Shown here in pieces: positions 2,086 through 16,569 of a stretch of DNA of 23,766 nt (within the stretch, counting starts at the first letter, position 1; every line of letters starts with the position of its first letter). Source of the DNA: a virus. The DNA lies in the IMG/VR virus record IMGVR_UViG_3300047366_000094, positions 1 through 23,766 of that record; one strand, 5' to 3'. The notes below the pieces were generated by a model. That model did no database searches. It was given only the letters and a program-made list of their open reading frames with translations, and was not told where the DNA came from. The position numbers and the translations under genes were made by a program.

Positions 2086-2846
2086 TAGTTACCGGCGGGT
2101 TTAGTTTGTGTGTTATTACCACCAGAGGTATCACCTGCTGCTGGAGCTTTGGTTGAAAGATATGCAGAACCACCTGCAAGGGCACTCTGACCCAGACCTA
2201 GAACAAGGCTCGTAGCAGACGGCCCCATAGGGCGAACTGGGTTGAGAGGATCCATAGGCCGTGCGACAATACTTTGGACAGGTTGAAACATCCTACGGCT
2301 AGCTGCCGCAGCATTAGCAGAGCGCTGATCCAATGAAATTCTTTCAGCTTCTAGTTCATACGCATCGGCTGCGTATCCAAGGTTGGTACCCAAACGTGCA
2401 AGGTCGCGGCCATAGTCACGTTCAGCATCAGACACAAGATTAGAAATACTCTGACCAGTACGGCCAGCAGCAAGGGTTGTGCCCATCTTCTTCATCTTCT
2501 TGATCCAAAGATCTTGCGCTGTCGCTGCTGCCTTCTCACGCTCACCTTGTAGCCTTAGCTGTTCGTAACGATACGCACGGTTGGCAGCATTACGATTCTG
2601 TTCTAGCTGCTCTTCATAGGCTTGCTGGCTTGCATTATACGCACGCATTTGGCCTGCATACTCTGCATCAGCATTAGCTTTCTGAATAGCGTAGTTACGG
2701 TTCTGGACTTGAATCTGATAATCACGAGCTGCCTGGGCAGACTCATGCTGGTATGCCGCTTGCTGTTGTTGCGTCTGGTATCCAGCAATAGTCTGAACAC
2801 CACCAATAACAGCTGTAGCAATACCTAAAGTAATAGGTTCACACAT
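2085..2846 (-). CDS. Internal virion protein, T7 gp14-like
   Basis: The 253-residue protein starts MCEPITLGIATAVIGGVQTI. This is a short Met-Cys leader and a glycine/alanine-rich hydrophobic segment (residues 5-21), as in T7 gp14, which also starts with Met-Cys. Residues 23-110 are a Gln/Ala/Asn-rich helix. A GRTGQSISNLVSDAERDYGR stretch (about 127-147) matches the part of gp14 proteins around an RR(D/E)Y element. The tail is Gly/Thr/Asn-rich. T7 gp14 (196 residues) is ejected first and is thought to form the outer-membrane part of the DNA conduit. Its ATG overlaps the end of the gp13-like gene by 8 bases (ATGTGTGA), and its stop overlaps the gp15-like start by one base. Confidence 0.85.
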   Translation of the reverse strand: MCEPITLGIATAVIGGVQTIAGYQTQQQQAAYQHESAQAARDYQIQVQNRNYAIQKANADAEYAGQMRAYNASQQAYEEQLEQNRNAANRAYRYEQLRLQGEREKAAATAQDLWIKKMKKMGTTLAAGRTGQSISNLVSDAERDYGRDLARLGTNLGYAADAYELEAERISLDQRSANAAAASRRMFQPVQSIVARPMDPLNPVRPMGPSATSLVLGLGQSALAGGSAYLSTKAPAAGDTSGGNNTQTKPAGN

Positions 2847-3294
2847 GGTTAGTTAATTTAGCAAACTCTACATAGGTTAATTTTTGTGGCCCAACTGTCA
2901 CATAGCTCAGCTTCTTAAACCCCAACATGTGGAGAAGCTTCATGTGCATATGGTTCCTTGGATCAGCGATGTTGTGAAGTACGGAATAGGAGGTTTGTTG
3001 ATCGACCCACTTCTTGGCCTCCTTAAAAAATAGCTTTGGATATGGGCGGACGTGATCGGTGGTCAACATCCAGATTGCTCCACAATGGGCATCTGTTCTG
3101 GATACCCCAGCCATGCCGCAGAGCTTATCTTTAACAAGAAAAGCAATAGGATCTTCTAGTTGGTCAAAAGATTTGGGTAGGACCTGATAAGGATTGTGGC
3201 CCCACCCAAGAATTTCACGCAGATCGTCCGTCTGTAGGTGTGCAGCTAAATAGGAAGCATCCTCTAATGTAGCTGGACGGATTTCATGGATCAT
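2839..3294 (-). CDS. T7 gp13-like protein with GNAT-type fold
   Basis: A 151-residue protein starting MIHEIRPATLEDASYLAAHL, which looks like the first strand and helix of a GNAT acetyltransferase. Later come a CGMAGVSR strand, a GAIWMLTTDHV strand (about 72-82) and a ...NHMHMKLLHMLGFKKL segment (about 113-128) resembling the last GNAT helix and strand. T7 gp13 (138 residues) sits at the same place between gp12 and gp14, has a similar fold and is needed for virion morphogenesis. I see no clear acetyl-CoA pyrophosphate loop (Q/RxxGxG/A), so enzymatic activity is doubtful. The start overlaps the stop of gp12 by 4 bases (ATGA). Confidence 0.8.
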   Translation of the reverse strand: MIHEIRPATLEDASYLAAHLQTDDLREILGWGHNPYQVLPKSFDQLEDPIAFLVKDKLCGMAGVSRTDAHCGAIWMLTTDHVRPYPKLFFKEAKKWVDQQTSYSVLHNIADPRNHMHMKLLHMLGFKKLSYVTVGPQKLTYVEFAKLTNHV

Positions 3295-5972
3295 ACTGCT
3301 CTGATACCTTTGTTGTTATAAGTGCCTTCCCAGATTAGCGTTACAAGAGCGAGAGGAAAAGGAGAGTTGCAGATAATTTTAAGATCTACATCACGGCCCT
3401 TAGCCATAACTGGAATGATGTTTTCGGCAGACCGAATCATCGGTGGTGTGTTTGCGGTACTTGAGTTGGCTTGAATCTGTGGCAGAGTCAATGTGAAAGT
3501 AGATCGTCCAGGGACATCAAGACTGATCTCATAAGGACCAGATTCATGACTATACAGACGAACACGGTGAATTGTTGGAACGTTAATCTCGTCTGCTTGC
3601 TTATCTTTCTTAACATAGAAACCAGGCAAACGTGCTTCAGAGGTAATGCGATAGCCCAAGGCATATTGCACAGCTGATTGATCACCTTCGACAGCGACAT
3701 AGTACTGCTGTCCTGGTGCCCCCGCTGCATCAAACTGCATCGTGGGGAACTGTGTAAATGAGTTGTCGTTTGGATCGATGGTTACCAGACAAGGTTGAGC
3801 AGCTGCAATGTCACAACCATCTTTAAAAAAGATACGGGTTTCGTCAGATGCAGGCACATAGGTTTTGGCTGGATTGTAATCAAACAAATCCATCCGCAGG
3901 TCTACATATTGATTGTCAAAGAAGATTGCACCGCCAGGGCTTTCTGTCATCAGACCAATATGGATCAGCACAGAACCACTATCAGTCTTGAGCACACCAA
4001 AGACTTCATCCTCATGGAAATCCACCAGCTCTACTTCGCCTGGGAATGTCCACTTGAACCAAGACGCAATCAAACGCTCAGTGTCTTGGGTGTAATACCT
4101 AAACAAATACAGTTCTTCTTTTTCTTGTACGCTTCTAAAAGCAAACAAGGAAGCACTGACGCTGTTGCTGGTCTGATCGATGCCAGTAGGAATGTAAGAC
4201 GGAATGAGTTTGCTTAGCTCTTTCCGCAAAGGGTTGGCCCCTTCTGAGATGGTGAGCTCGTTGACTGCGATAGAGGTGTTGTTTTCCTCCACCACAACCA
4301 CAGTGTTGCCAAGGTCAACCGGCTTGACGTTAACGCTATGGCTAAAGCTAGACATCAAGTTAAGTTCAGCAGTGGTAGGCGAGAACGCTTCGGTTCGCGT
4401 CTGCAGCACATACTGAGAGTTGTCTGCAAACATCAGCAAACCATTGGTACGCTGCAACGCATGACGAAACTCAATCCGAGTGACAGAACCTGCGGACAGG
4501 TCAATAGGGTCACTGTCAATTGTAGTAATTACAGTCTGAGGATAAAACTTAAGAAACTCTGCAGCCTGAGAACAGACAACGTTTTCACTACTCATCAAGA
4601 CAAGTCGGTTCTTAAAGAACGACATGCCTGTAATAGAGTTACCTACAAAAGTAGGGTCTTTGGCTGTCTCTGCATCACCAACGGTACGGCCTTCCCAGTA
4701 CTGGTTTGCCCAGGTGCTACCGCTAATTGTCTGTGTACCTACGGTGTTGATGGTAAATGTATCACCCTCATTATTAGATACAACATCAGCTGCTGTATAG
4801 TCTTGACCAGCACGCACAATCTTGATGCCAGTGATCTGACGGTTGGCATTGATTGATGTTACTTGTAGGCGCAGGTTTTTACCAGTACCACCATAGACAG
4901 GAAAGCTTTGGCCAATGTGCCAACGAGCGTTTCCGTTGCTAGTCACAGAAGCCGTCAAGGGAATGCCGTTGACAGACGTGGATAGAACGTAAGAGTTCGC
5001 AGCAGATTCACTCAGCTCACGGAAGGTGTAGCTACCGTCAGCCTCACGAATGATGGCATGAGGCATAGTTGAGGCATCAACACCAAGGTTAGTGCCAGGG
5101 CCTACCGTCTCTTGCCACACACCGGCACCTTCGCCAGATCCTGTTTCGGTTTCAAATTTTAGAAAATAATCATCACCAGTAGAATCACCACTGGCAGCAA
5201 TGCGAACAATCTTGCCATGCACAAACTGAGCAGGCAGATCTTCGACGCCATCAATCGTGCCTTTATATGCTTCGAGACCAGTACCGGAGACACTACCAGA
5301 TGCCTTCAACGAAAAGTCCGCACCATTCGTACGCTCGATATAGATGTAGTTGGCGACCCCGATCGCGTTGTAATTTGCATTACCGTTGATTGAGGTAACC
5401 AACGCATCAACGATAGTGTTTGTGTTAAGACGACTACCACTGGAGGTTGGAGACTGGTAAACAAAAGGAACACCATCGATTGTAATCTTGTACTCGGTGT
5501 CGTACGCAATCGTTGTCAGTTCGGCCCAACCGAATGGTGTCTGTGTTGGTGATGTTGCAGTTCCGTTGGCAACTAGAATGTTTCTATTAAGAACAAAGAT
5601 AAAATCGTTAATCTGTAGAACTTCTAGTTCCGTTTTAGAATCATGGGTTGCATAAGTAGTAGCACTAGACGACAACGCATTGACTGTCTGTGCAATACCA
5701 CTCTGAGCATCCCAAAGCTTTACACCACCTGTTTTGCTAATCTGTAGCAAAAGTTTTTCGTCAAGTCCTTTACAAATAAAGAACCATGATCCATCAGCGT
5801 AAGGGCTGTCTAACTTGCGAACGTGTTTGGCGCCTGGTCTTTTCAGCAGACCAAAGGTTGGGTCAGGGTAGTAATTATCACACTCTCGGAATTGGCCCGG
5901 AAGCATAAGAGAATCAGGCTGTTGAGATACCCCACCAACCAGGCCAATGATTTTTTGTGAGATAGCAGCCAT
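3291..5972 (-). CDS. Tail tubular protein B (nozzle), T7 gp12-like
   Basis: An 893-residue protein starting MAAISQKIIGLVGGVSQQPD. This carries the family signature seen in T7 gp12, where the equivalent start reads ...ISQSIKNLKGGISQQPD. It continues with a YYPDPTFGLLKRPGAKHVRKL region, in which the L-KRP element is also conserved. The rest is beta-rich with many Thr, Ser, Gly and Asn residues, as expected for a beta-propeller nozzle. T7 gp12 has 794 residues, so this copy is about 100 longer. It closes the tail tip, binds the tail fibres and is part of the DNA exit channel. The gene lies 3 bases after gp11 and overlaps gp13 by 4 bases. No obvious Shine-Dalgarno sequence precedes the ATG. Confidence 0.93.
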   Translation of the reverse strand: MAAISQKIIGLVGGVSQQPDSLMLPGQFRECDNYYPDPTFGLLKRPGAKHVRKLDSPYADGSWFFICKGLDEKLLLQISKTGGVKLWDAQSGIAQTVNALSSSATTYATHDSKTELEVLQINDFIFVLNRNILVANGTATSPTQTPFGWAELTTIAYDTEYKITIDGVPFVYQSPTSSGSRLNTNTIVDALVTSINGNANYNAIGVANYIYIERTNGADFSLKASGSVSGTGLEAYKGTIDGVEDLPAQFVHGKIVRIAASGDSTGDDYFLKFETETGSGEGAGVWQETVGPGTNLGVDASTMPHAIIREADGSYTFRELSESAANSYVLSTSVNGIPLTASVTSNGNARWHIGQSFPVYGGTGKNLRLQVTSINANRQITGIKIVRAGQDYTAADVVSNNEGDTFTINTVGTQTISGSTWANQYWEGRTVGDAETAKDPTFVGNSITGMSFFKNRLVLMSSENVVCSQAAEFLKFYPQTVITTIDSDPIDLSAGSVTRIEFRHALQRTNGLLMFADNSQYVLQTRTEAFSPTTAELNLMSSFSHSVNVKPVDLGNTVVVVEENNTSIAVNELTISEGANPLRKELSKLIPSYIPTGIDQTSNSVSASLFAFRSVQEKEELYLFRYYTQDTERLIASWFKWTFPGEVELVDFHEDEVFGVLKTDSGSVLIHIGLMTESPGGAIFFDNQYVDLRMDLFDYNPAKTYVPASDETRIFFKDGCDIAAAQPCLVTIDPNDNSFTQFPTMQFDAAGAPGQQYYVAVEGDQSAVQYALGYRITSEARLPGFYVKKDKQADEINVPTIHRVRLYSHESGPYEISLDVPGRSTFTLTLPQIQANSSTANTPPMIRSAENIIPVMAKGRDVDLKIICNSPFPLALVTLIWEGTYNNKGIRAV

Positions 5973-10716: not shown

Positions 10717-10929
10717 TTATTCGAGTTTAGATTTTAGAAACCTGACAATGTGAATACAACCAGACCGAAAGGCCAGGTCACGTTCAGAGATGTTGCTGTC
10801 AGGAAAAACATCTGGGTACATCTCATCCAACTCCTTGATTAGAGTTTTGAGATTTACCTTCCCCCCTACTACACGAGCAAGGGGAACATCAACGGAGTAA
10901 ACATCATCATCCATACTGTGGTAGGTCAT
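10717..10929 (-). CDS. Small unknown protein downstream of RNR beta
   Basis: A 70-residue protein starting MTYHSMDDDVYSVDVPLARV. It is acidic at the N-terminus, with a helix at about residues 25-38 and a C-terminal HIVRFLKSKLE. It overlaps the end of the RNR beta gene by 23 bases. A second in-frame ATG at 10914 would cut the overlap to 8 bases, which is more typical of this genome. The next gene starts 2 bases after its stop. I do not recognise the family. Its place at the junction of nucleotide metabolism and virion genes matches the T7 gp6.5-7 region, but no homology is claimed. Confidence 0.65.
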   Translation of the reverse strand: MTYHSMDDDVYSVDVPLARVVGGKVNLKTLIKELDEMYPDVFPDSNISERDLAFRSGCIHIVRFLKSKLE

Positions 10930-11635
10930 TATTAGAGGCTTCGAAGAACGCAGGCATACGGCTGCGCTGTGTGTCCTTTAGCCCCGGAGCCTTGCCCCGA
11001 GCATAAAGACTGTCGGACTGTTTAATCCAGAAGTCTTTGTTGAGGTATTTGTTCTCGTCCATACCAAGACTATCCATTACCCAAGCGACTGTGGCTCGGC
11101 GCAAACGATTGAGGCTTGATGTGGACTTGAGGCCCAGCTCGGAACATACCATCGTATGGATCGCAACGTGGCACTGTTCGTCTCTTGACACGTCGGCTGC
11201 CGTCGAGCGGAGGCCGATGTCTCCGTTGAATCGGAAGAAGGGGAGGATGACGAAGAAGACACTGCGTTCGAGAATAGCGGCTTTAAGAATAGGATGCTCA
11301 GGCGCATCGAGCCATGCTCTCAAAATATGTTTGGCTTCGTCTTCATATTTTTCTTCCGCACCATGCGCCTTAATGACATAATTAAGGGCAAGGTCATGGT
11401 TCTCTTCATCCTTTTGATTGGACAAAAGAGCTTCGCGCAACCCTGGAGTGTTTGGCAGTTCGCGGTCTAATCCTTGTTGGAGAAACTCGCGTACGGGAAG
11501 TTCGAGGTGGCGGAGTCCGAGTGCTCTTTTCAGAGCATCTTCAGACCCCTCAACTACCTCCCCCTTCTGAACTGCTAAAGGCGTCCACTTGCGCTTCCGA
11601 CTAATAACTTGATCGTAGGGTGATAGCTGTGTCAT
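10907..11635 (-). CDS. nrdB: Ribonucleotide reductase beta (R2-like) subunit, ferritin-like
   Basis: I start at the ATG at 11635, which overlaps the alpha-subunit stop by 4 bases (ATGA), giving 242 residues. The two ExxH motifs of diiron/dimanganese ferritin-like proteins are visible: E77-E-N-H80 in KDEENHDLAL and E153-Q-C-H156 in RDEQCHVAIH. A further likely ligand, E123, lies in ILERSVFFVI, as on helix E of R2 proteins. The protein is shorter than usual (about 320-375). The residue four after the first histidine, where E. coli R2 has its radical tyrosine Y122, is Leu84. The beta subunit would generate the radical used by the adjacent alpha subunit. Cyanopodovirus RNRs of this kind have been described as an unusual class I group earlier mistaken for class II. 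Confidence 0.85.
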   Translation of the reverse strand: MTQLSPYDQVISRKRKWTPLAVQKGEVVEGSEDALKRALGLRHLELPVREFLQQGLDRELPNTPGLREALLSNQKDEENHDLALNYVIKAHGAEEKYEDEAKHILRAWLDAPEHPILKAAILERSVFFVILPFFRFNGDIGLRSTAADVSRDEQCHVAIHTMVCSELGLKSTSSLNRLRRATVAWVMDSLGMDENKYLNKDFWIKQSDSLYARGKAPGLKDTQRSRMPAFFEASNNDLPQYG

Positions 11636-13047
11636 TCTCCGCAGGGAATACAAATGTTGTCTTCTTTTAGGTTAGGGGTGGAACTGCTATCTGGATCAAG
11701 CTCTTCCTCGAACTTAAACATTTCGTGGAAGTCATCATCCAATGCGGCAAAGGCATCATCCTTTGCTTGGGTATCAGGTTGCACCTGCAGACTGTAGTAG
11801 AGACTGGTCTGTGGCGACCTCAACCATTCTTGTAGGAAACGCTCGTCATAGGTACACACATCACTCCAAGAGTTGAAGGAGTACCCGTGGAAAAGGTTTG
11901 TCTTAGTCAGCATCGTTACGATGCCATCGGCAACTCGCTTGTATGCTTTCCAACCTACCTCTGATGCAATCTCACAGTCGGGTGGATAGTCGAAGCTTTG
12001 AGTACCGAACGTGCCGGAGTCACGGTCAACCTGCCGAGAGATAGGAGGTGCAATCTCAGGGGTGGTGGTGAAGCCACGCAGGTCAACGTTCTGATAGCTG
12101 CAGCTGGCTGTCGGTGCAATGGCAAAGGCACGATCCATGTCCATTGCGCGAGCTTCGATAGCTGCAAGCTCAATGCCTAGCCCAATGTTAGAAGCAAGGC
12201 GATAAGCCACAGACTCATTAGGTTGGTTGTTGTTGTAAGCATCAAGTGCTTCACCAAACTCAGCGTATGTGACTTTGTTTTGTGCCAGGAAATTTGCTAG
12301 GCCAAGCATTCCAAGGCCAACCTGACGGTCAATGGTGGGGCTCAAGTATTCACCACTCTTGTCAACACCAGTGCGACCATGAAGTTCACACAGACTCCGC
12401 ATCCCATCACGGAAAGCAATGGATACTTCTTCTGGCTTACAAGCCGCAAGGTTGATGTGCTGCAAGAGGCAGGTGCCACGGCTCTTGAGATACACCTCAA
12501 GGCAAACATTGCTACGGATGCGCTCACCGTTCTGGTCATACTTGATCTTCGATAGCCAGAGATCACCCTTCTTGATGGCGTCAAGAGTGGCACGGATCAG
12601 TTCGGGGTGGGCTTCTTCAAGGAAGTTAGGGTCTACGTTGAGACACTTCTTCATCCAAGGCAGCTGATCACGGGTAGCTGTGACAAACTCAAGAGCGTCC
12701 TTGTGCCAGTAATCGAGGTGAGCCACTGTCGCGCCGTTCTTGTACACTCCACCGCGCCTTAAGGTCTGGTTAAGAGCTGAGTAGAGGTAGGCGAAAGAGA
12801 CAGGACCGCTTGCCGTAAGACCCTTTCCGTTCTCAGCGCCACGGGGACGGAGATCAGAAAGATGAATAGCAACACCAGCTCCGTGGCGTAGCGCGAAAGA
12901 GGCAAAGCGCCAAGAGGCTTCGATGCCTTCGGGTCCCTCCATGCTGTCCGACACGTTAAAGATCGTGCAGCTGACTGGCAAACGGGACTCCGGGTTGTCA
13001 ATCCAATTTTGAACACGGCCGGTACGAACAATTTTTTCAGGTTTCAT
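11632..13047 (-). CDS. nrdA: Ribonucleotide reductase alpha (catalytic) subunit, short cyanophage type
   Basis: I use the ATG at 13047 (MKPEKIVRTGRVQNW, 471 residues), which overlaps the mazG end by 11 bases. A TTG at 13056 is also in frame. Catalytic elements are visible: LPVSC (C27, matching E. coli C225), SNVCLEV with N180, C182 and E184 (the N437-C439-E441 triad, C182 being the thiyl radical site), and C193 (matching C462). APTASCSYQN (about 311-320) is the substrate phosphate loop. The C-terminus ends CIPCGE, a swinging redox pair. The protein is far shorter than bacterial alpha subunits (over 700) and lacks a recognisable ATP-cone at its N-terminus. It reduces ribonucleotides to deoxyribonucleotides for phage DNA synthesis. 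Confidence 0.92.
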   Translation of the reverse strand: MKPEKIVRTGRVQNWIDNPESRLPVSCTIFNVSDSMEGPEGIEASWRFASFALRHGAGVAIHLSDLRPRGAENGKGLTASGPVSFAYLYSALNQTLRRGGVYKNGATVAHLDYWHKDALEFVTATRDQLPWMKKCLNVDPNFLEEAHPELIRATLDAIKKGDLWLSKIKYDQNGERIRSNVCLEVYLKSRGTCLLQHINLAACKPEEVSIAFRDGMRSLCELHGRTGVDKSGEYLSPTIDRQVGLGMLGLANFLAQNKVTYAEFGEALDAYNNNQPNESVAYRLASNIGLGIELAAIEARAMDMDRAFAIAPTASCSYQNVDLRGFTTTPEIAPPISRQVDRDSGTFGTQSFDYPPDCEIASEVGWKAYKRVADGIVTMLTKTNLFHGYSFNSWSDVCTYDERFLQEWLRSPQTSLYYSLQVQPDTQAKDDAFAALDDDFHEMFKFEEELDPDSSSTPNLKEDNICIPCGE

Positions 13048-13435
13048 CTGCAACAAGGTCAGTGAGAACAGGTGGTTGATAGTTCTTCCCCTTCAGTATC
13101 TTACCATCGTCACGGCGTAGGGGCTTGCCATCAACGAGTTTGCTCATATTTGATTCATAAACACGGCGCATGGCTGTGTCCAAATCCCAACCGCGAGCAG
13201 CGGCATATTGAAAACAGACGAACACCAAGTCAGCCAGCTCTTTCAGCTGGTGTTCCTTGTTCTCTAAACGAGAGATGTTGTTGTCTGAAAACTCAAGATC
13301 AAATGCTTCATCAAATTCGTTGAGCTCTTCAACGATTAGACGATGCTGCATTTCATGGACGCATTCGTCCTGGGTGTTGACCAGTTGACCCATAGCCACT
13401 CGAAATTCGATGGCCTGTTGCATTAGCGATGTCAT
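13037..13435 (-). CDS. mazG: MazG-like nucleotide pyrophosphohydrolase
   Basis: Started at the ATG at 13435, which overlaps the preceding stop by 4 bases (ATGA), giving 132 residues from MTSLMQQAIEFRVAMGQLVN. The frame is open to 13489, but that extra part lies inside the upstream gene. The magnesium-binding pattern of the all-alpha NTP pyrophosphohydrolase family is clear: E36-E37-L-N-E40 in VEELNEFDEAF, then E66-L-A-D69 in KELADLVFVCF. A C-terminal SNMSKLVDGKPLRRDDGKIL segment matches the phosphoribosyl-ATP-diphosphatase-like phage proteins. Such enzymes hydrolyse NTPs or dNTPs. In cyanophages they have been proposed to act on nucleotide pools or ppGpp, but the substrate here is unknown. 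It lies directly upstream of the RNR genes. Confidence 0.9.
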   Translation of the reverse strand: MTSLMQQAIEFRVAMGQLVNTQDECVHEMQHRLIVEELNEFDEAFDLEFSDNNISRLENKEHQLKELADLVFVCFQYAAARGWDLDTAMRRVYESNMSKLVDGKPLRRDDGKILKGKNYQPPVLTDLVADET

Positions 13436-13824
13436 TGTTGGTGCAGTTGCTGGAGCTTGCGGTTGACATAAGCATGGACCTTTAGCCAATCATCGAGTTC
13501 AGATTCCCCCGACTTGTGGCCAGCACGACAAATGTATTTTACACAGTTGCCTGCCAAATAGTCAAGCTCTTGATCGACAATGAAATCCCAGATCTCAATC
13601 GTCCCCCTCTTGTAGTGGGCCGGATTGCTTTTGGAAGTTTCCTTTGAAGAGCTCTCGGTAGGCTGGGTTTCTTCTGATGGCGAAGAGTTCTGCTTCCCGT
13701 AGAACACGTCCCAGGGGTCCTGGCTTTCTTGATAGTAGGTCAAAGTAGATTCGTAATCGAAAAAGGATTCTATGTCTTCGTAGTTCAACTTGGACAAGAA
13801 GTTCCTGGAGGGCGACTTGAGCAT
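13432..13824 (-). CDS. DUF3310 protein, T7 gp1.7 (nucleotide kinase)-like
   Basis: The C-terminal 60 residues form a recognisable DUF3310 domain: HYKRGTIEIWDFIVDQ, then LAGNCVKYICRAGHKSG and DDWLKVHAYVNRKL. The family is marked by the HY, GN--KY--R and D--K--Y elements seen here. T7 gp1.7, which carries this domain, is a nucleoside monophosphate kinase acting on dTMP and dGMP. The N-terminal half is a Ser/Thr/Glu linker (about residues 46-66) plus an aromatic, acidic segment. The start is uncertain: ATG at 13824 is used (130 residues), and a GTG at 13836 is in frame. Neither has a good Shine-Dalgarno motif. The N-terminal half overlaps another open frame (13595-13909) almost completely. Confidence 0.85.
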   Translation of the reverse strand: MLKSPSRNFLSKLNYEDIESFFDYESTLTYYQESQDPWDVFYGKQNSSPSEETQPTESSSKETSKSNPAHYKRGTIEIWDFIVDQELDYLAGNCVKYICRAGHKSGESELDDWLKVHAYVNRKLQQLHQQ

Positions 13825-13909
13825 AGAAGAACACACGAGGATCTACAACGTAGATAAAGAAGGCAATACCTATGCAGCTCCAAACTCCTATGGCGGTGTA
13901 GTTGGCCAT
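13595..13909 (-). CDS. Possible overlapping membrane protein ORF
   Basis: A 104-residue frame starts at an ATG at 13909, 22 bases inside the end of nblA. It begins MANYTAIGVWSCIGIAFFIY, a convincing single membrane helix. Its first 25 or so codons end mostly in C or T, like genuine genes here, and this part fills the gap between nblA and the DUF3310 gene. From about 13836 on it overlaps the DUF3310 frame, which is offset by one base, and its codons become arginine-rich and unlike neighbouring genes. It could be a real overlapping gene, or the first part could be joined to DUF3310 by a +1 frameshift or a sequence error. No homolog is recognised. Confidence 0.38.
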   Translation of the reverse strand: MANYTAIGVWSCIGIAFFIYVVDPRVFFYAQVALQELLVQVELRRHRILFRLRIYFDLLSRKPGPLGRVLREAELFAIRRNPAYRELFKGNFQKQSGPLQEGDD

Positions 13910-14085
13910 TGTTTTATCAGGTTAGAAAGATTATTAGACAGAATAAAATTCTGCTTTTGCAACTGCATGTATAGATCAAGCAGATCTTGCTTGTCTATTT
14001 GTGTTGCGAGATCTTCTATCCTTCGGAGTTTGAACTGTTGCTCCAGGGTCAGCTCGACAACTGGGGGTGGAGGGAAGGGTTCCAT
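13888..14085 (-). CDS. nblA: NblA-like phycobilisome degradation protein
   Basis: A 65-residue protein starting MEPFPPPPVVELTLEQQFKL. The LTLEQQFKLR segment (about 12-21), a two-helix pattern of alternating hydrophobic residues and an N-x-L-x-x-L-I-K-Q end match the NblA family (about 60 residues, usually LSLEQQF-LR near the N-terminus). NblA is a small adaptor that binds phycobiliproteins and the ClpC chaperone, so that host phycobilisomes are broken down. In phages it is an auxiliary metabolic gene, reported from several cyanophages. The gene overlaps the exonuclease end by 37 bases, and the proline-rich start is coded in that overlap. It implies a host with phycobilisomes. The gene after it overlaps its 3' end if the membrane ORF is real. 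Confidence 0.9.
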   Translation of the reverse strand: MEPFPPPPVVELTLEQQFKLRRIEDLATQIDKQDLLDLYMQLQKQNFILSNNLSNLIKQWPTTPP

Positions 14086-14813
14086 AGGATAGGTTCTTTG
14101 GTTGTTGAGTTGTACTCGCCTGGTCGCAGAATCCTTGCCAGCCTTGCGTTACGCAAAGCATCATCGATAGTCAACCCCGCCTTTTCATAAGACGTTACGA
14201 TTGCTTCCCACGGATCTTCTGCCTTAGCCAAGATTTTTTCTGCGCCCTTGCTACCAACGCCAGGTACGCCTTTGTATCCATCGACTGGATCACCGGTAAG
14301 GCATTGAGTCCAGAACCAGTAATCAGCCTCTTCAGTAGTGACCTGTAATAATTCGTTGCCATTGAATAAGTTGCAAGATATTTGCTTCAGGTCTTTGTCA
14401 GGAGATACAAGGATAAAATCGCTAGGATCACAATGGCATTCCAGACCCAATGCGTCATCAGCTTCGAGGTTTTCATAACGAATAGTTTTGTAATTGGCAT
14501 TGCACCATTCCAAAAGCCGCTTGTAACCTACTGGTTTTCGCTTGGTGCGCTTGCCTTTGTATTCAGGGTCGATGGTCTTTCTGAAGTTCTTACTGCTAGA
14601 GAAGAACAACAGCACACGTTCTGTGTTAAATCTTTTCTTGAGACAATCAATGTCATAGTTAAATGATCTGATCACCTCTTTGAAATTAGAAGCGATGGTT
14701 ACAAGATCATCGCCCCAATCTAGTTCTGTCTCGTTTACCTGGCAACTACGGTAAGCATAGAAGTCTGCGTCAATCCGCAGCTCCGGCTCAGTGACAGTCG
14801 GCCCAGGTCGCAC
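14049..14813 (-). CDS. 5'-3' exonuclease, T7 gp6-like
   Basis: FEN/5' nuclease family motifs appear in order: RIDADFYAYRS (D15 and D17), KPVGYKRLLEW, LEADDALGL (E117, D119, D120), VSPDKDLKQI (D139, D141) and GDPVDGYKGVPGVGSKGAEKIL (D175, D178, then the helix-hairpin-helix). These acidic residues bind the two catalytic metals. T7 gp6 removes RNA primers, degrades host DNA and aids recombination. The start is ambiguous. I choose the GTG at 14813 (254 residues, 26-base overlap with the polymerase gene, weak GGAA upstream). An ATG at 14903 would add 30 Ser/Lys/Arg-rich low-complexity residues coded inside the polymerase gene. The end (LWNPSLHPQLSS) runs a few residues past the LW-P end of T7 gp6. 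Confidence 0.92.
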   Translation of the reverse strand: MRPGPTVTEPELRIDADFYAYRSCQVNETELDWGDDLVTIASNFKEVIRSFNYDIDCLKKRFNTERVLLFFSSSKNFRKTIDPEYKGKRTKRKPVGYKRLLEWCNANYKTIRYENLEADDALGLECHCDPSDFILVSPDKDLKQISCNLFNGNELLQVTTEEADYWFWTQCLTGDPVDGYKGVPGVGSKGAEKILAKAEDPWEAIVTSYEKAGLTIDDALRNARLARILRPGEYNSTTKEPILWNPSLHPQLSS

Positions 14814-16569
14814 CGTCTTTTGCTTCCGCTGCGAGCGGGACTTTGAGCCCGAGTTGCTCGCCCGCTTGGACGATTGACCATTCGAGTTGGAACTTGGCAT
14901 CATTCAGAATGTGTGGTGCTACGGATAGCTGGATTTCGTCGTGGATCCATCCAAGCCATTGGAAGTCGTCGCCCCATTTATACCCCAGTTCAATGAACTG
15001 TGCAAAGGCGATGTTGTTCCACAGCTTACAGCAGATGGCTCCAGCACTTTGGAGTAAGTAGTTGGTAGCTGCGTGTCGCTTTCCTTGTAAACGTATTGGT
15101 CTGCCATCGAGAGCGACCAACACGTCAGAATCAGCCCGACGGTTGATATGCGCGAGAAGTGGTTCCAACCCAGGAATAGCCGCCAAAAATTTTTCCCGGA
15201 TTTCTTTGCCGAGTTTTCTGGCATGGACATCATCTAAGGTGTTGTCAAGGGACAGGGCTAACTTTTTATCGGAAGCCCCGTAGATAAACCCATAAGTAAG
15301 GGTCTTCACTTCTTTCCTTGTACAACCCACACGGTCTGCATTCTGTTGATGGATGTCTCCGTTGATTACAACGTCAGCGAAAGCACCATTATCGAAATAA
15401 GACAAATAATGCCCAAGCATCCTAAGCTCCAAGCCGGAAGCATCTGCACCCAACTGGATCCGATCATGACCAGGATTAAATAGTTCGCGGCAACGAGGAT
15501 CCGAACTCGTCTGGCCCAGATTTGGTCGGCTGTGCGCGTTTCTCCCTGTGTTCGTAGCCAGTTGGCAGGTGTGGTGAATCCTTCCCTCCTTGGTGACCAT
15601 CTTGAGCCAGGCGTTTGTGCCGTCGCTGAGTTGTCCAAGGGCTTTCTGAAGTTCCAGAATCCGTGCGAAGGTTCTAGCTTCTTCAGTGTCGATGGCTTTA
15701 AGTACTCCTTCATCGATCTTCGGGTTCCCGGTATCTGTGAACTGTTCTGGTTTCCAACCACGCCAGGTAGCAAAAGCAAAAGCAATGTGCTGCCTGCTGG
15801 TGGGGTTGAACTCCTTCAGCTTAGTAAATTCAGCACCCTCAATGTAGCCCTTTGTCTTGTTGTTGCGCTTGGGGGTCATACTCCCACCGTCCACATACGG
15901 GAACGTCTCTCGCATGTGGTCAGCAAGTTGATCCATCTCTGTTCGGAGAGTGGATTCAAGCTTCTGTGCTTTCTCAACATTAAAGGGCCAGCCAGACCAC
16001 TCTTGTAGAGACATGATTTTTGCAGTCTCATGCTCGATGTGGATGGCGCAGTCGTACAGGCGGATCTCCTTGTAGAAGGTCTGCAGCAGCGACTCACAAA
16101 CATGCACGTCCTGTTCGCAATAGTCTTCCATCTCAACGGACCACTCAGACCAATCGGTTGACTTACCGAACTGTCCCTTGTAGTTGCCGAGACGATAGCC
16201 CCATGCTTCTAGACTGTGCCTGCCATACAGTTGACCAGCCATGCCAGGTGGCCGCTTCCTGATGTCCTCTGAGAGGATATTGGTGCGGAACATCCGTGAC
16301 AGGATGAGGGTGTCAAATGTCTTTCCTGAGTACTCAAAGAAAGGAAACAAGTGCTTGATCACTGGGAGGTCAAACCCCAGGATGTTGTGGCCAACCAACA
16401 CATCAGCCTCAGCCAATAGGTTGATGCCTGTGGTGATTGATTCTGTGTTACCAACGTCGTTGTACCTGTTCACCTGGCCGGTTTCGAGGTCCTTGGTAAC
16501 AATGCAGTGGATACAGCTCAAGCCTTTACGCGGAAGGCCGTCTGTTTCAATGTCGAACAGTAGCTTCAT
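14788..16569 (-). CDS. Family A DNA polymerase, T7 gp5-like
   Basis: A 593-residue protein. The N-terminal 3'-5' exonuclease has LFDIETDGL (D6, E8), GHNILGFD (D67) and EDYCEQDV (Y150, D154). The polymerase has motif A GADASGLELR (D376), motif B RKEVKTLTYGFIYG (R418, K422, Y426, aligning with T7 R518, K522, Y526) and motif C WIHDEIQL (D545). It ends WADCH, like the WAICH of T7. T7 gp5 has 704 residues. Much of the difference lies in the thumb: only about 30 residues (224-253) separate ETF from FNPTSR, against about 72 in T7, where the thioredoxin-binding loop is. The start overlaps the previous stop by 4 bases (ATGA). Confidence 0.96.
   Translation of the reverse strand: MKLLFDIETDGLPRKGLSCIHCIVTKDLETGQVNRYNDVGNTESITTGINLLAEADVLVGHNILGFDLPVIKHLFPFFEYSGKTFDTLILSRMFRTNILSEDIRKRPPGMAGQLYGRHSLEAWGYRLGNYKGQFGKSTDWSEWSVEMEDYCEQDVHVCESLLQTFYKEIRLYDCAIHIEHETAKIMSLQEWSGWPFNVEKAQKLESTLRTEMDQLADHMRETFPYVDGGSMTPKRNNKTKGYIEGAEFTKLKEFNPTSRQHIAFAFATWRGWKPEQFTDTGNPKIDEGVLKAIDTEEARTFARILELQKALGQLSDGTNAWLKMVTKEGRIHHTCQLATNTGRNAHSRPNLGQTSSDPRCRELFNPGHDRIQLGADASGLELRMLGHYLSYFDNGAFADVVINGDIHQQNADRVGCTRKEVKTLTYGFIYGASDKKLALSLDNTLDDVHARKLGKEIREKFLAAIPGLEPLLAHINRRADSDVLVALDGRPIRLQGKRHAATNYLLQSAGAICCKLWNNIAFAQFIELGYKWGDDFQWLGWIHDEIQLSVAPHILNDAKFQLEWSIVQAGEQLGLKVPLAAEAKDGATWADCH

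What the first reader, a model, noticed from the sequence alone, without database searches (positions are those of the whole stretch)
13888..14085. Phage-encoded NblA inside a T7-like replication module
The 65-residue protein carries LTLEQQFKLR and the two-helix layout of NblA, the adaptor that directs phycobilisome breakdown. Well-known T7-like marine cyanopodoviruses (P-SSP7 type) carry psbA and hli rather than nblA, as far as I recall. Here nblA sits between exonuclease and nucleotide-metabolism genes, and no photosynthesis gene is visible in the window. This suggests a strategy of recycling amino acids from, or uncoupling, the host antenna, and a phycobilisome-bearing host.
Basis: partly seen in the sequence, partly recalled or inferred. 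Interest (0 to 1): 0.75.

Follow-up and report, generated by a model that had tools for sequence, protein, structure and literature searches.

The report
NblA gene in a T7-like cyanophage
A virus of photosynthetic bacteria carries a small gene whose protein very likely makes the host take apart its light-harvesting antenna; such virus genes are already known and tested, and what is unusual here is only that this branch of the virus family normally lacks the gene.

Summary
The minus-strand ORF 13888-14085 encodes a 65-aa NblA: PF04485 33.5 bits, cut-off 25; solved NblA chains are its only significant PDB relatives; two helices are predicted. Many T7-like cyanophages carry nblA in this slot, between exonuclease and nrd (16 of 16 intact copies in fetched phage records). 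P-SSP7 has a diverged member, so the contrast with P-SSP7 is wrong. At least 583 IMG/VR stretches encode relatives. Nadel 2019 predicted nblA in 14 cyanopodovirus isolates and Nadel 2025 studied it; both are seen only through citing papers.

New here: the window is not a P-SSP7-type (clade B) phage. It belongs to an uncultured lineage, sister to clade A (Syn5 type), in which no psbA was found. There nblA is rare: 2 of 35 clusters at 95%, sisters in the polymerase tree. Six clade A records and P-RSP2 lack nblA.

Likely function: a ClpC adaptor that causes phycobilisome proteolysis (inferred; not tested for this protein). New member of a known kind; modest interest.

The parts
13888..14085 (-). 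nblA, 65 aa: proline-rich start, helix 14-27, turn, helix 32-59
   Evidence: PF04485 33.5 bits; PDB NblA 3cs5 E 2e-5 with one sequence and 7e-8 with the profile; AlphaFold2 pLDDT 87, two helices
14049..14903 (-). T7-like 5'-3' exonuclease; its 3' end overlaps the nblA start by 37 nt
   Evidence: PF02739 and PHROG 107
13595..13909 (-). 104-aa protein with a hydrophobic N-terminus, no family hit; start overlaps the nblA end by 22 nt; relatives in 68 of 70 lineage loci
13432..13836 (-). DUF3310 ('nucleotide kinase' PHROG) protein
   Evidence: PF11753 42.7 bits
13037..13489 (-). MazG-like nucleotide pyrophosphohydrolase
   Evidence: PF01503, PHROG 671
11632..13056 (-). ribonucleotide reductase large subunit
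   Evidence: PF02867, PHROG 367
10907..11653 (-). ribonucleotide reductase small subunit; 64-67% identical to Syn5, S-TIP28 and SS120-1
   Evidence: PHROG 6799
14788..16569 (-). DNA polymerase in one unsplit ORF (clade A style); used to place the phage
   Evidence: PF00476

Best explanation
It is a phage-encoded NblA. Shown: sequence homology to NblA, two-helix prediction, purifying selection on the family, and a fixed place in the exonuclease-to-nrd segment. Inferred: made during infection, it dimerises, binds phycobiliproteins through its C-terminal helix region and the host ClpC chaperone through the conserved N-terminal LTLEQQFKLR stretch. It thereby brings the antenna to the host ClpC-ClpP protease, lowering light harvesting and freeing amino acids while the phage replicates its DNA. 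The gene sits in the slot used by clade B T7-like cyanophages, but in a lineage beside clade A that mostly lacks it and in which no psbA was found. The simplest history is one gain in the small subclade made up of the window's virus and L209/L210.
For: PF04485 above cut-off. PDB NblA chains are the only hits below 0.001, four of them, with the family profile. Two-helix model, pLDDT 87. The nblA-family gene lies between exonuclease and nrd in 16 of 16 fetched phage records with an intact copy, and within 150 nt of the exonuclease end in 100 of 100 IMG/VR nblA loci that hold an exonuclease match (9 more of the 109 hold none). Median dN/dS 0.085. In the window's lineage nblA is present in 4 of 70 covered loci, 2 of 35 clusters, which are sisters in the polymerase tree (SH-aLRT 99). 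Mechanism of the family from reviews: PMC7966870 (passages), PMC4103541 (passages), PMC7760959 (passages). Activity of marine phage NblA expressed in Synechococcus elongatus PCC 7942, as told by PMC9602691 (section read).
Against: No function was tested for this protein. The host is unknown. Foldseek found no NblA structure with the model (best E 7.6), so the fold rests on predicted helices and on sequence. Identity to the host NblA loci L070-L109 is only 29-38%. The invariance of ELTLEQQF in my alignment is partly built in, because that stretch was one of the search patterns. A single gain is parsimony only: retention from a common ancestor with many losses is not excluded, the NblA tree (57 columns) is poorly resolved and does not join the window with L209/L210.
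Confidence: 0.88

Rival explanations
1. The protein keeps the NblA fold but has been turned to another target, for example a non-phycobilisome ClpC substrate or a host defence protein. It would work as a generic ClpC adaptor.
For: Diverged relatives persist in phages of Prochlorococcus, which lacks phycobilisomes: P-SSP7, NATL1A-7 and P-GSP1 carry family members without any Pfam NblA match, though family profiles find P-SSP7's at E 4.8e-28 and P-GSP1's at 1.9e-14 and NATL1A-7's at 3.3e-26.
Against: The window protein itself has the highest NblA score of the nine phage proteins scored, 33.5 bits, above L209's 32.6 and S-TIP37's 28.6.
Confidence: 0.08
2. nblA was ancestral to all T7-like cyanophages and was lost many times on the clade A side; the window's subclade is a relic, not a gain.
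For: Same slot in clade B and in the window. The window and L209/L210 NblA fall outside the clade B NblA group (SH-aLRT 93).
Against: Needs separate losses in clade A and inside the lineage (33 of 35 clusters lack it). The NblA tree has few columns and long branches, and on it the two nblA of the subclade do not form one group.
Confidence: 0.3
3. The ORF is a chance or decaying frame between exonuclease and its neighbour.
For: It overlaps both neighbours, and I see no clear ribosome-binding site before its ATG (by eye). S-RIP1 shows a broken copy.
Against: Above-threshold Pfam hit, intact in three contigs of this virus, purifying selection in the family.
Confidence: 0.01

Closest known systems
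NblA of S-TIP37 (clade B T7-like cyanophage, MH540083); phage NblA of Nadel et al. 2019 and 2025
   Same: Same family, 60% identity, same slot after the exonuclease. Nadel 2019 predicted nblA in 14 cyanopodovirus isolates, as told by PMC9602691. PMC12892361 says many oceanic cyanophages encode NblA, citing Nadel 2025 (passage). That S-TIP37 was used in the 2025 work is recalled, from no call.
   Different: S-TIP37 has a split polymerase and psbA. The window phage has an unsplit polymerase, no psbA found, and a backbone beside clade A.
Cyanobacterial NblA (PF04485; PDB 3cs5, 1ojh, 2q8v, 2qdo)
   Same: L-x-x-EQ core, two helices, 54-65 aa.
   Different: Phage-encoded, proline-rich N-terminus, diverged C-terminal helix, embedded in a replication module.
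NblA of freshwater cyanophages Ma-LMM01, MaMV-DC, PaV-LD
   Same: Phage-encoded NblA, reported expressed during infection with phycobilin decline (PMC9602691).
   Different: Different phages. PMC9602691 places marine/estuarine phage NblA apart from theirs. Not compared here by sequence.
Clade A T7-like cyanophages (Syn5, S-TIP28, S-CBP42; with them in the tree S-CBP2, P60, SS120-1)
   Same: Nearest backbone, unsplit polymerase (S-CBP42: two overlapping matches), no psbA. The first three are called clade A in PMC9381782; the other three by their place in the polymerase tree.
   Different: All six lack an nblA-family gene over the whole record.

Membership tests
NblA (PF04485) | Scores above the curated profile cut-off | tested here: met
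   33.5 bits against 25; 33 bits in a six-frame search of the record
NblA (PF04485) | About 60 aa, two-helix hairpin | tested here: met
   65 aa; helices 14-27 and 32-59, pLDDT 87; pTM 0.54
NblA (PF04485) | Structural match to solved NblA | tested here: inconclusive
   Foldseek gave no match to NblA, a weak test for a short hairpin; by sequence the PDB NblA chains match
NblA (PF04485) | Dimer / four-helix bundle | not tested
   only the monomer was predicted
NblA (PF04485) | Conserved N-terminal motif (reported ClpC-binding region) | tested here: met
   The window has ELTLEQQF, as in solved NblA 1ojh (ELSLEQQF). It is invariant in 22 of 22 rows of A1, but it was a search pattern. In phage records found by tblastn the stretch varies (EQQF, EQDF, EQEF, EQDL). 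ClpC binding not tested; motif role from PMC4103541
NblA (PF04485) | Binds phycobiliproteins and triggers their proteolysis | not testable with these tools
   needs expression in a cyanobacterium
Clade B (P-SSP7-type) T7-like cyanophage | Split DNA polymerase, psbA present | tested here: not met
   polymerase in one ORF, psbA not found in window or in the 40.8-kb record
Clade A (Syn5-type) T7-like cyanophage | Groups within clade A in core-gene trees | tested here: inconclusive
   sister to six clade A phages in the polymerase tree (98/96) and beside three in the nrdB tree (100/99); inside them in the primase tree (weak, long branches); unresolved in the exonuclease tree; own lineage apart from clade A (96 and 100). 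Best called a sister lineage
Clade A (Syn5-type) T7-like cyanophage | No psbA | tested here: met
   records may be fragments
Clade A (Syn5-type) T7-like cyanophage | Thioredoxin gene (most clade A, PMC9381782) | not tested
   none noticed between primase and polymerase, where S-TIP28 has it; no profile was run

The most novel reading that the evidence does not exclude
nblA entered, once, a lineage beside clade A without psbA at the very slot (exonuclease | mazG/nrd) where clade B phages carry theirs. The slot would then be a shared docking site for antenna-control genes, and antenna dismantling can be selected without any phage photosystem gene, giving a natural with/without comparison inside one lineage.
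Probability: 0.5. Interest if true: 0.4.

Novelty: new member of a known kind. Interest (0 to 1): 0.27.

Why it matters
Phage NblA lowers host light harvesting; one review cites an estimate of up to 5% of global photosynthetic light capture (PMC12892361, passage). Knowing which phage lineages carry nblA bears on that estimate. This record extends nblA to a lineage beside clade A in which no psbA was found, and its nblA-free close relatives give a comparison of phages that differ at this slot.

Tried and rejected
Chance ORF: rejected (Pfam hit, conservation, dN/dS). P-SSP7-type phage that merely lacks photosynthesis genes: rejected (trees, unsplit polymerase). Recent transfer from a sampled clade B phage: not supported; no other fetched nblA exceeds 68% identity and the window NblA falls outside the clade B group, with weak support. 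Foldseek against PDB: no useful match. A search of genome contigs with the L028 NblA confirmed nothing; with alignment A1 it gave 44 loci, four of them phage-like (L066-L069) and most of the rest filamentous cyanobacteria, so picocyanobacterial host NblA is missing from my tree. Hli search with PF00504: 0 of 13 IMG/VR records and not Syn5; its one match, S-TIP37, was below the cut-off, so the test is insensitive, and the window record itself was not among those searched. Promoter scan and dimer prediction were not run. The tools do not tell the habitat of the IMG/VR contigs. In one search the exonuclease tree was finished only by the quick method and leaves the window unresolved, and part of the primase output was cut. 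P-RSP2, which I first counted as clade A from recall, lies on a long branch in the polymerase tree and among clade B rows in the nrdB tree; I now leave its clade open. On checking, an earlier figure of 48% for the best polymerase identity of other nblA loci was wrong; one search gives 55% for segments of 150 aa or more.

Full report
Observation. The window is an IMG/VR virus record of 23,766 bases. The ORF lies on the minus strand at 13888-14085 and encodes 65 residues. It matches Pfam NblA at 33.5 bits against a cut-off of 25 and PHROG 27006 of unknown function. Among solved structures the single sequence finds four NblA chains (best 3cs5, E 2e-5; the other three 0.019 to 0.25). A profile of 22 phage relatives finds the same four as the only hits below 0.001. 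AlphaFold2 on that alignment gives two helices, residues 14-27 and 32-59, pLDDT 87, pTM 0.54. Foldseek against the PDB did not find NblA (best E 7.6); a short hairpin is a poor query, so I count this as inconclusive, not as support.

Neighbourhood. The main genes run on the minus strand: RNA polymerase, primase/helicase, DNA polymerase, exonuclease, nblA, a 104-aa ORF with a hydrophobic start, DUF3310, MazG, ribonucleotide reductase large and small subunits. nblA overlaps the exonuclease by 37 nt and the 104-aa ORF by 22 nt. psbA was not found in the window, nor in a 40,785-base record of the same virus (99.99% identical over the 16.8 kb compared). Both records may be fragments.

How common it is. 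tblastn with the 65-aa protein hit 37 of 50,697 phage records at E up to 1, all with cyanophage names or uncultured deep-chlorophyll-maximum phages. I fetched 28 phage records: 16 of those 37 (the rest are duplicates, near relatives such as KBS-P-1A, WH11-B, 7B11-B and P-SSP3, and one short record), and 12 picked from the exonuclease and DNA matches that were not among the 37 (P-SSP6 and S45-C18 were left out). A profile grown from the window protein finds an intact nblA-family gene in 16 of 28, a frame-broken one in S-RIP1, and none in the fetched region of 11. The 11 were searched over the whole record with alignment A1 and stayed negative: Syn5, S-TIP28, S-CBP2, P60, S-CBP42, SS120-1, P-RSP2, NATL2A-133, P-SSP10, 9515-10a, P-SCSP-R27W. 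In the 16 the gene lies between exonuclease and nrd in 16. psbA is in 19 of the 28. Of the 17 with an nblA-family gene (intact or broken) 15 have psbA; S-SRP01 and S28-C3 do not. P-SSP7's, NATL1A-7's and P-GSP1's proteins have no Pfam NblA match, which may be why they are easily overlooked. Of 109 nblA loci and 70 other than the window's own virus, 100 hold an exonuclease match and in all 100 nblA starts within 150 nt of its end; of the other nine, five (L028-L032) come from another kind of phage and four begin just before nblA.

Prior art. PMC9602691 (section read) says Nadel et al. 2019 predicted nblA in 14 cyanopodovirus isolates and one cyanomyovirus, and that nblA from marine viral metagenomes expressed in S. 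elongatus PCC 7942 caused shifts associated with phycobilin loss. PMC12892361 (passage) cites Nadel et al. 2025, Nature 648:434, for many oceanic cyanophages encoding NblA and an estimate of up to 5% reduction of light capture. Neither Nadel paper is held. So the kind is known and tested.

What is different here. [quoted passage not shown] The window polymerase is one ORF. In the polymerase tree it is sister to six clade A phages (98/96), and in the nrdB tree it groups with the three that have nrdB in the fetched region (100/99). The primase tree puts it inside clade A but is flagged for long branches; the quick exonuclease tree leaves it unresolved. P-RSP2 lies on a long branch and I leave its clade open. 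Among the 109 nblA loci, 82 hold a polymerase segment of 150 aa or more, and the best of these is 55% identical to the window, against 71-77% in the window's lineage. That lineage came from a scan with the window polymerase: 461 relatives in IMG/VR, of which the best 80 were kept, two of them the window's own virus. 70 of these 80 cover the slot after the exonuclease; 4 carry nblA: the window's virus twice, and L209/L210. At 95% identity the 70 fall into 35 clusters, 2 with nblA; relatives of the 104-aa neighbour are in 68 of 70 loci and missing only from L209/L210. In the 11 nblA-free loci that I listed, the exonuclease is followed directly by that neighbour, and comparison with the window gives a net extra of about 150 nt where nblA sits. 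Eight nblA-free records of the lineage searched whole have no nblA elsewhere, and 0 of 11 lineage records have psbA (several are fragments). The two nblA clusters are sisters (SH-aLRT 99) inside a lineage (96) that is sister to five clade A phages (100, quick method). Parsimony favours one gain. The NblA tree is short and weak, but puts the window and L209/L210 outside the clade B proteins (93) and does not join the window with L209/L210, which leaves an ancient relic or two gains possible.

Mechanism. NblA is a ClpC adaptor that brings phycobiliproteins to the Clp protease (PMC7966870, passages). PMC4103541 (passages) reports a conserved N-terminal motif that binds ClpC and a C-terminal motif that binds phycobiliproteins. 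The window protein keeps the N-terminal stretch seen in solved NblA; its invariance in my alignment is partly built in by the search patterns. The family is under purifying selection: median dN/dS 0.085, 486 pairs, all below 0.5, with the same caution. I infer the same action for this protein. Shown: family membership, position, selection. Inferred: expression, dimer, ClpC and phycobilisome binding, benefit to the phage. The host is unknown; clade A infects mostly Synechococcus, so a phycobilisome-bearing host is likely.

Verdict. A real nblA, new member of a known kind, in a lineage where it is rare. I saw no statement on nblA beside clade A in the search listings or in the passages that I read, but the two key papers could not be read, so I do not claim that it is unreported.

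Noticed in passing
L036 3968-4276, L050 3468-3740, L052 3471-3695: Phages of Prochlorococcus (P-SSP7, NATL1A-7, P-GSP1) keep diverged nblA-family genes although Prochlorococcus has no phycobilisomes; their target is an open question.
   Followed up: partly
L059 (S-RIP1) 3990-4399: The nblA of S-RIP1 lies in two frames in the deposited record: broken gene or sequencing error.
   Followed up: no
L061-L064 (NATL2A-133, P-SSP10, 9515-10a, P-SCSP-R27W): A Prochlorococcus-phage group with psbA but no nblA; the IMG/VR relative L184, its sister in the polymerase tree, has nblA.
   Followed up: partly
L028-L032, e.g. L032 9950-10204: A different phage with an NblA (PF04485 30.6 bits) next to ORFs that look, by eye, like an HNH nuclease and a large terminase; L032 lies in a 125,842-base contig.
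   Followed up: partly
L069: A contig of a Prochlorococcus single-cell genome (AG-363-G03) holds T7-like polymerase, exonuclease and nrd matches with an nblA relative between exonuclease and nrd.
   Followed up: partly
L035 3001-3204; L043 3501-3704: nblA is not annotated in the GenBank records of S-TIP37 and S-RIP2, and is a hypothetical protein in several others.
   Followed up: yes
window 13595-13909: A 104-aa ORF with a hydrophobic N-terminus, with relatives in 68 of 70 loci of the lineage and none (tblastn, E 1e-3) in the eight clade A and clade B loci compared; function unknown.
   Followed up: partly
window 2839-3294: A 151-aa ORF that looks like a GNAT acetyltransferase by eye; no profile run.
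   Followed up: no
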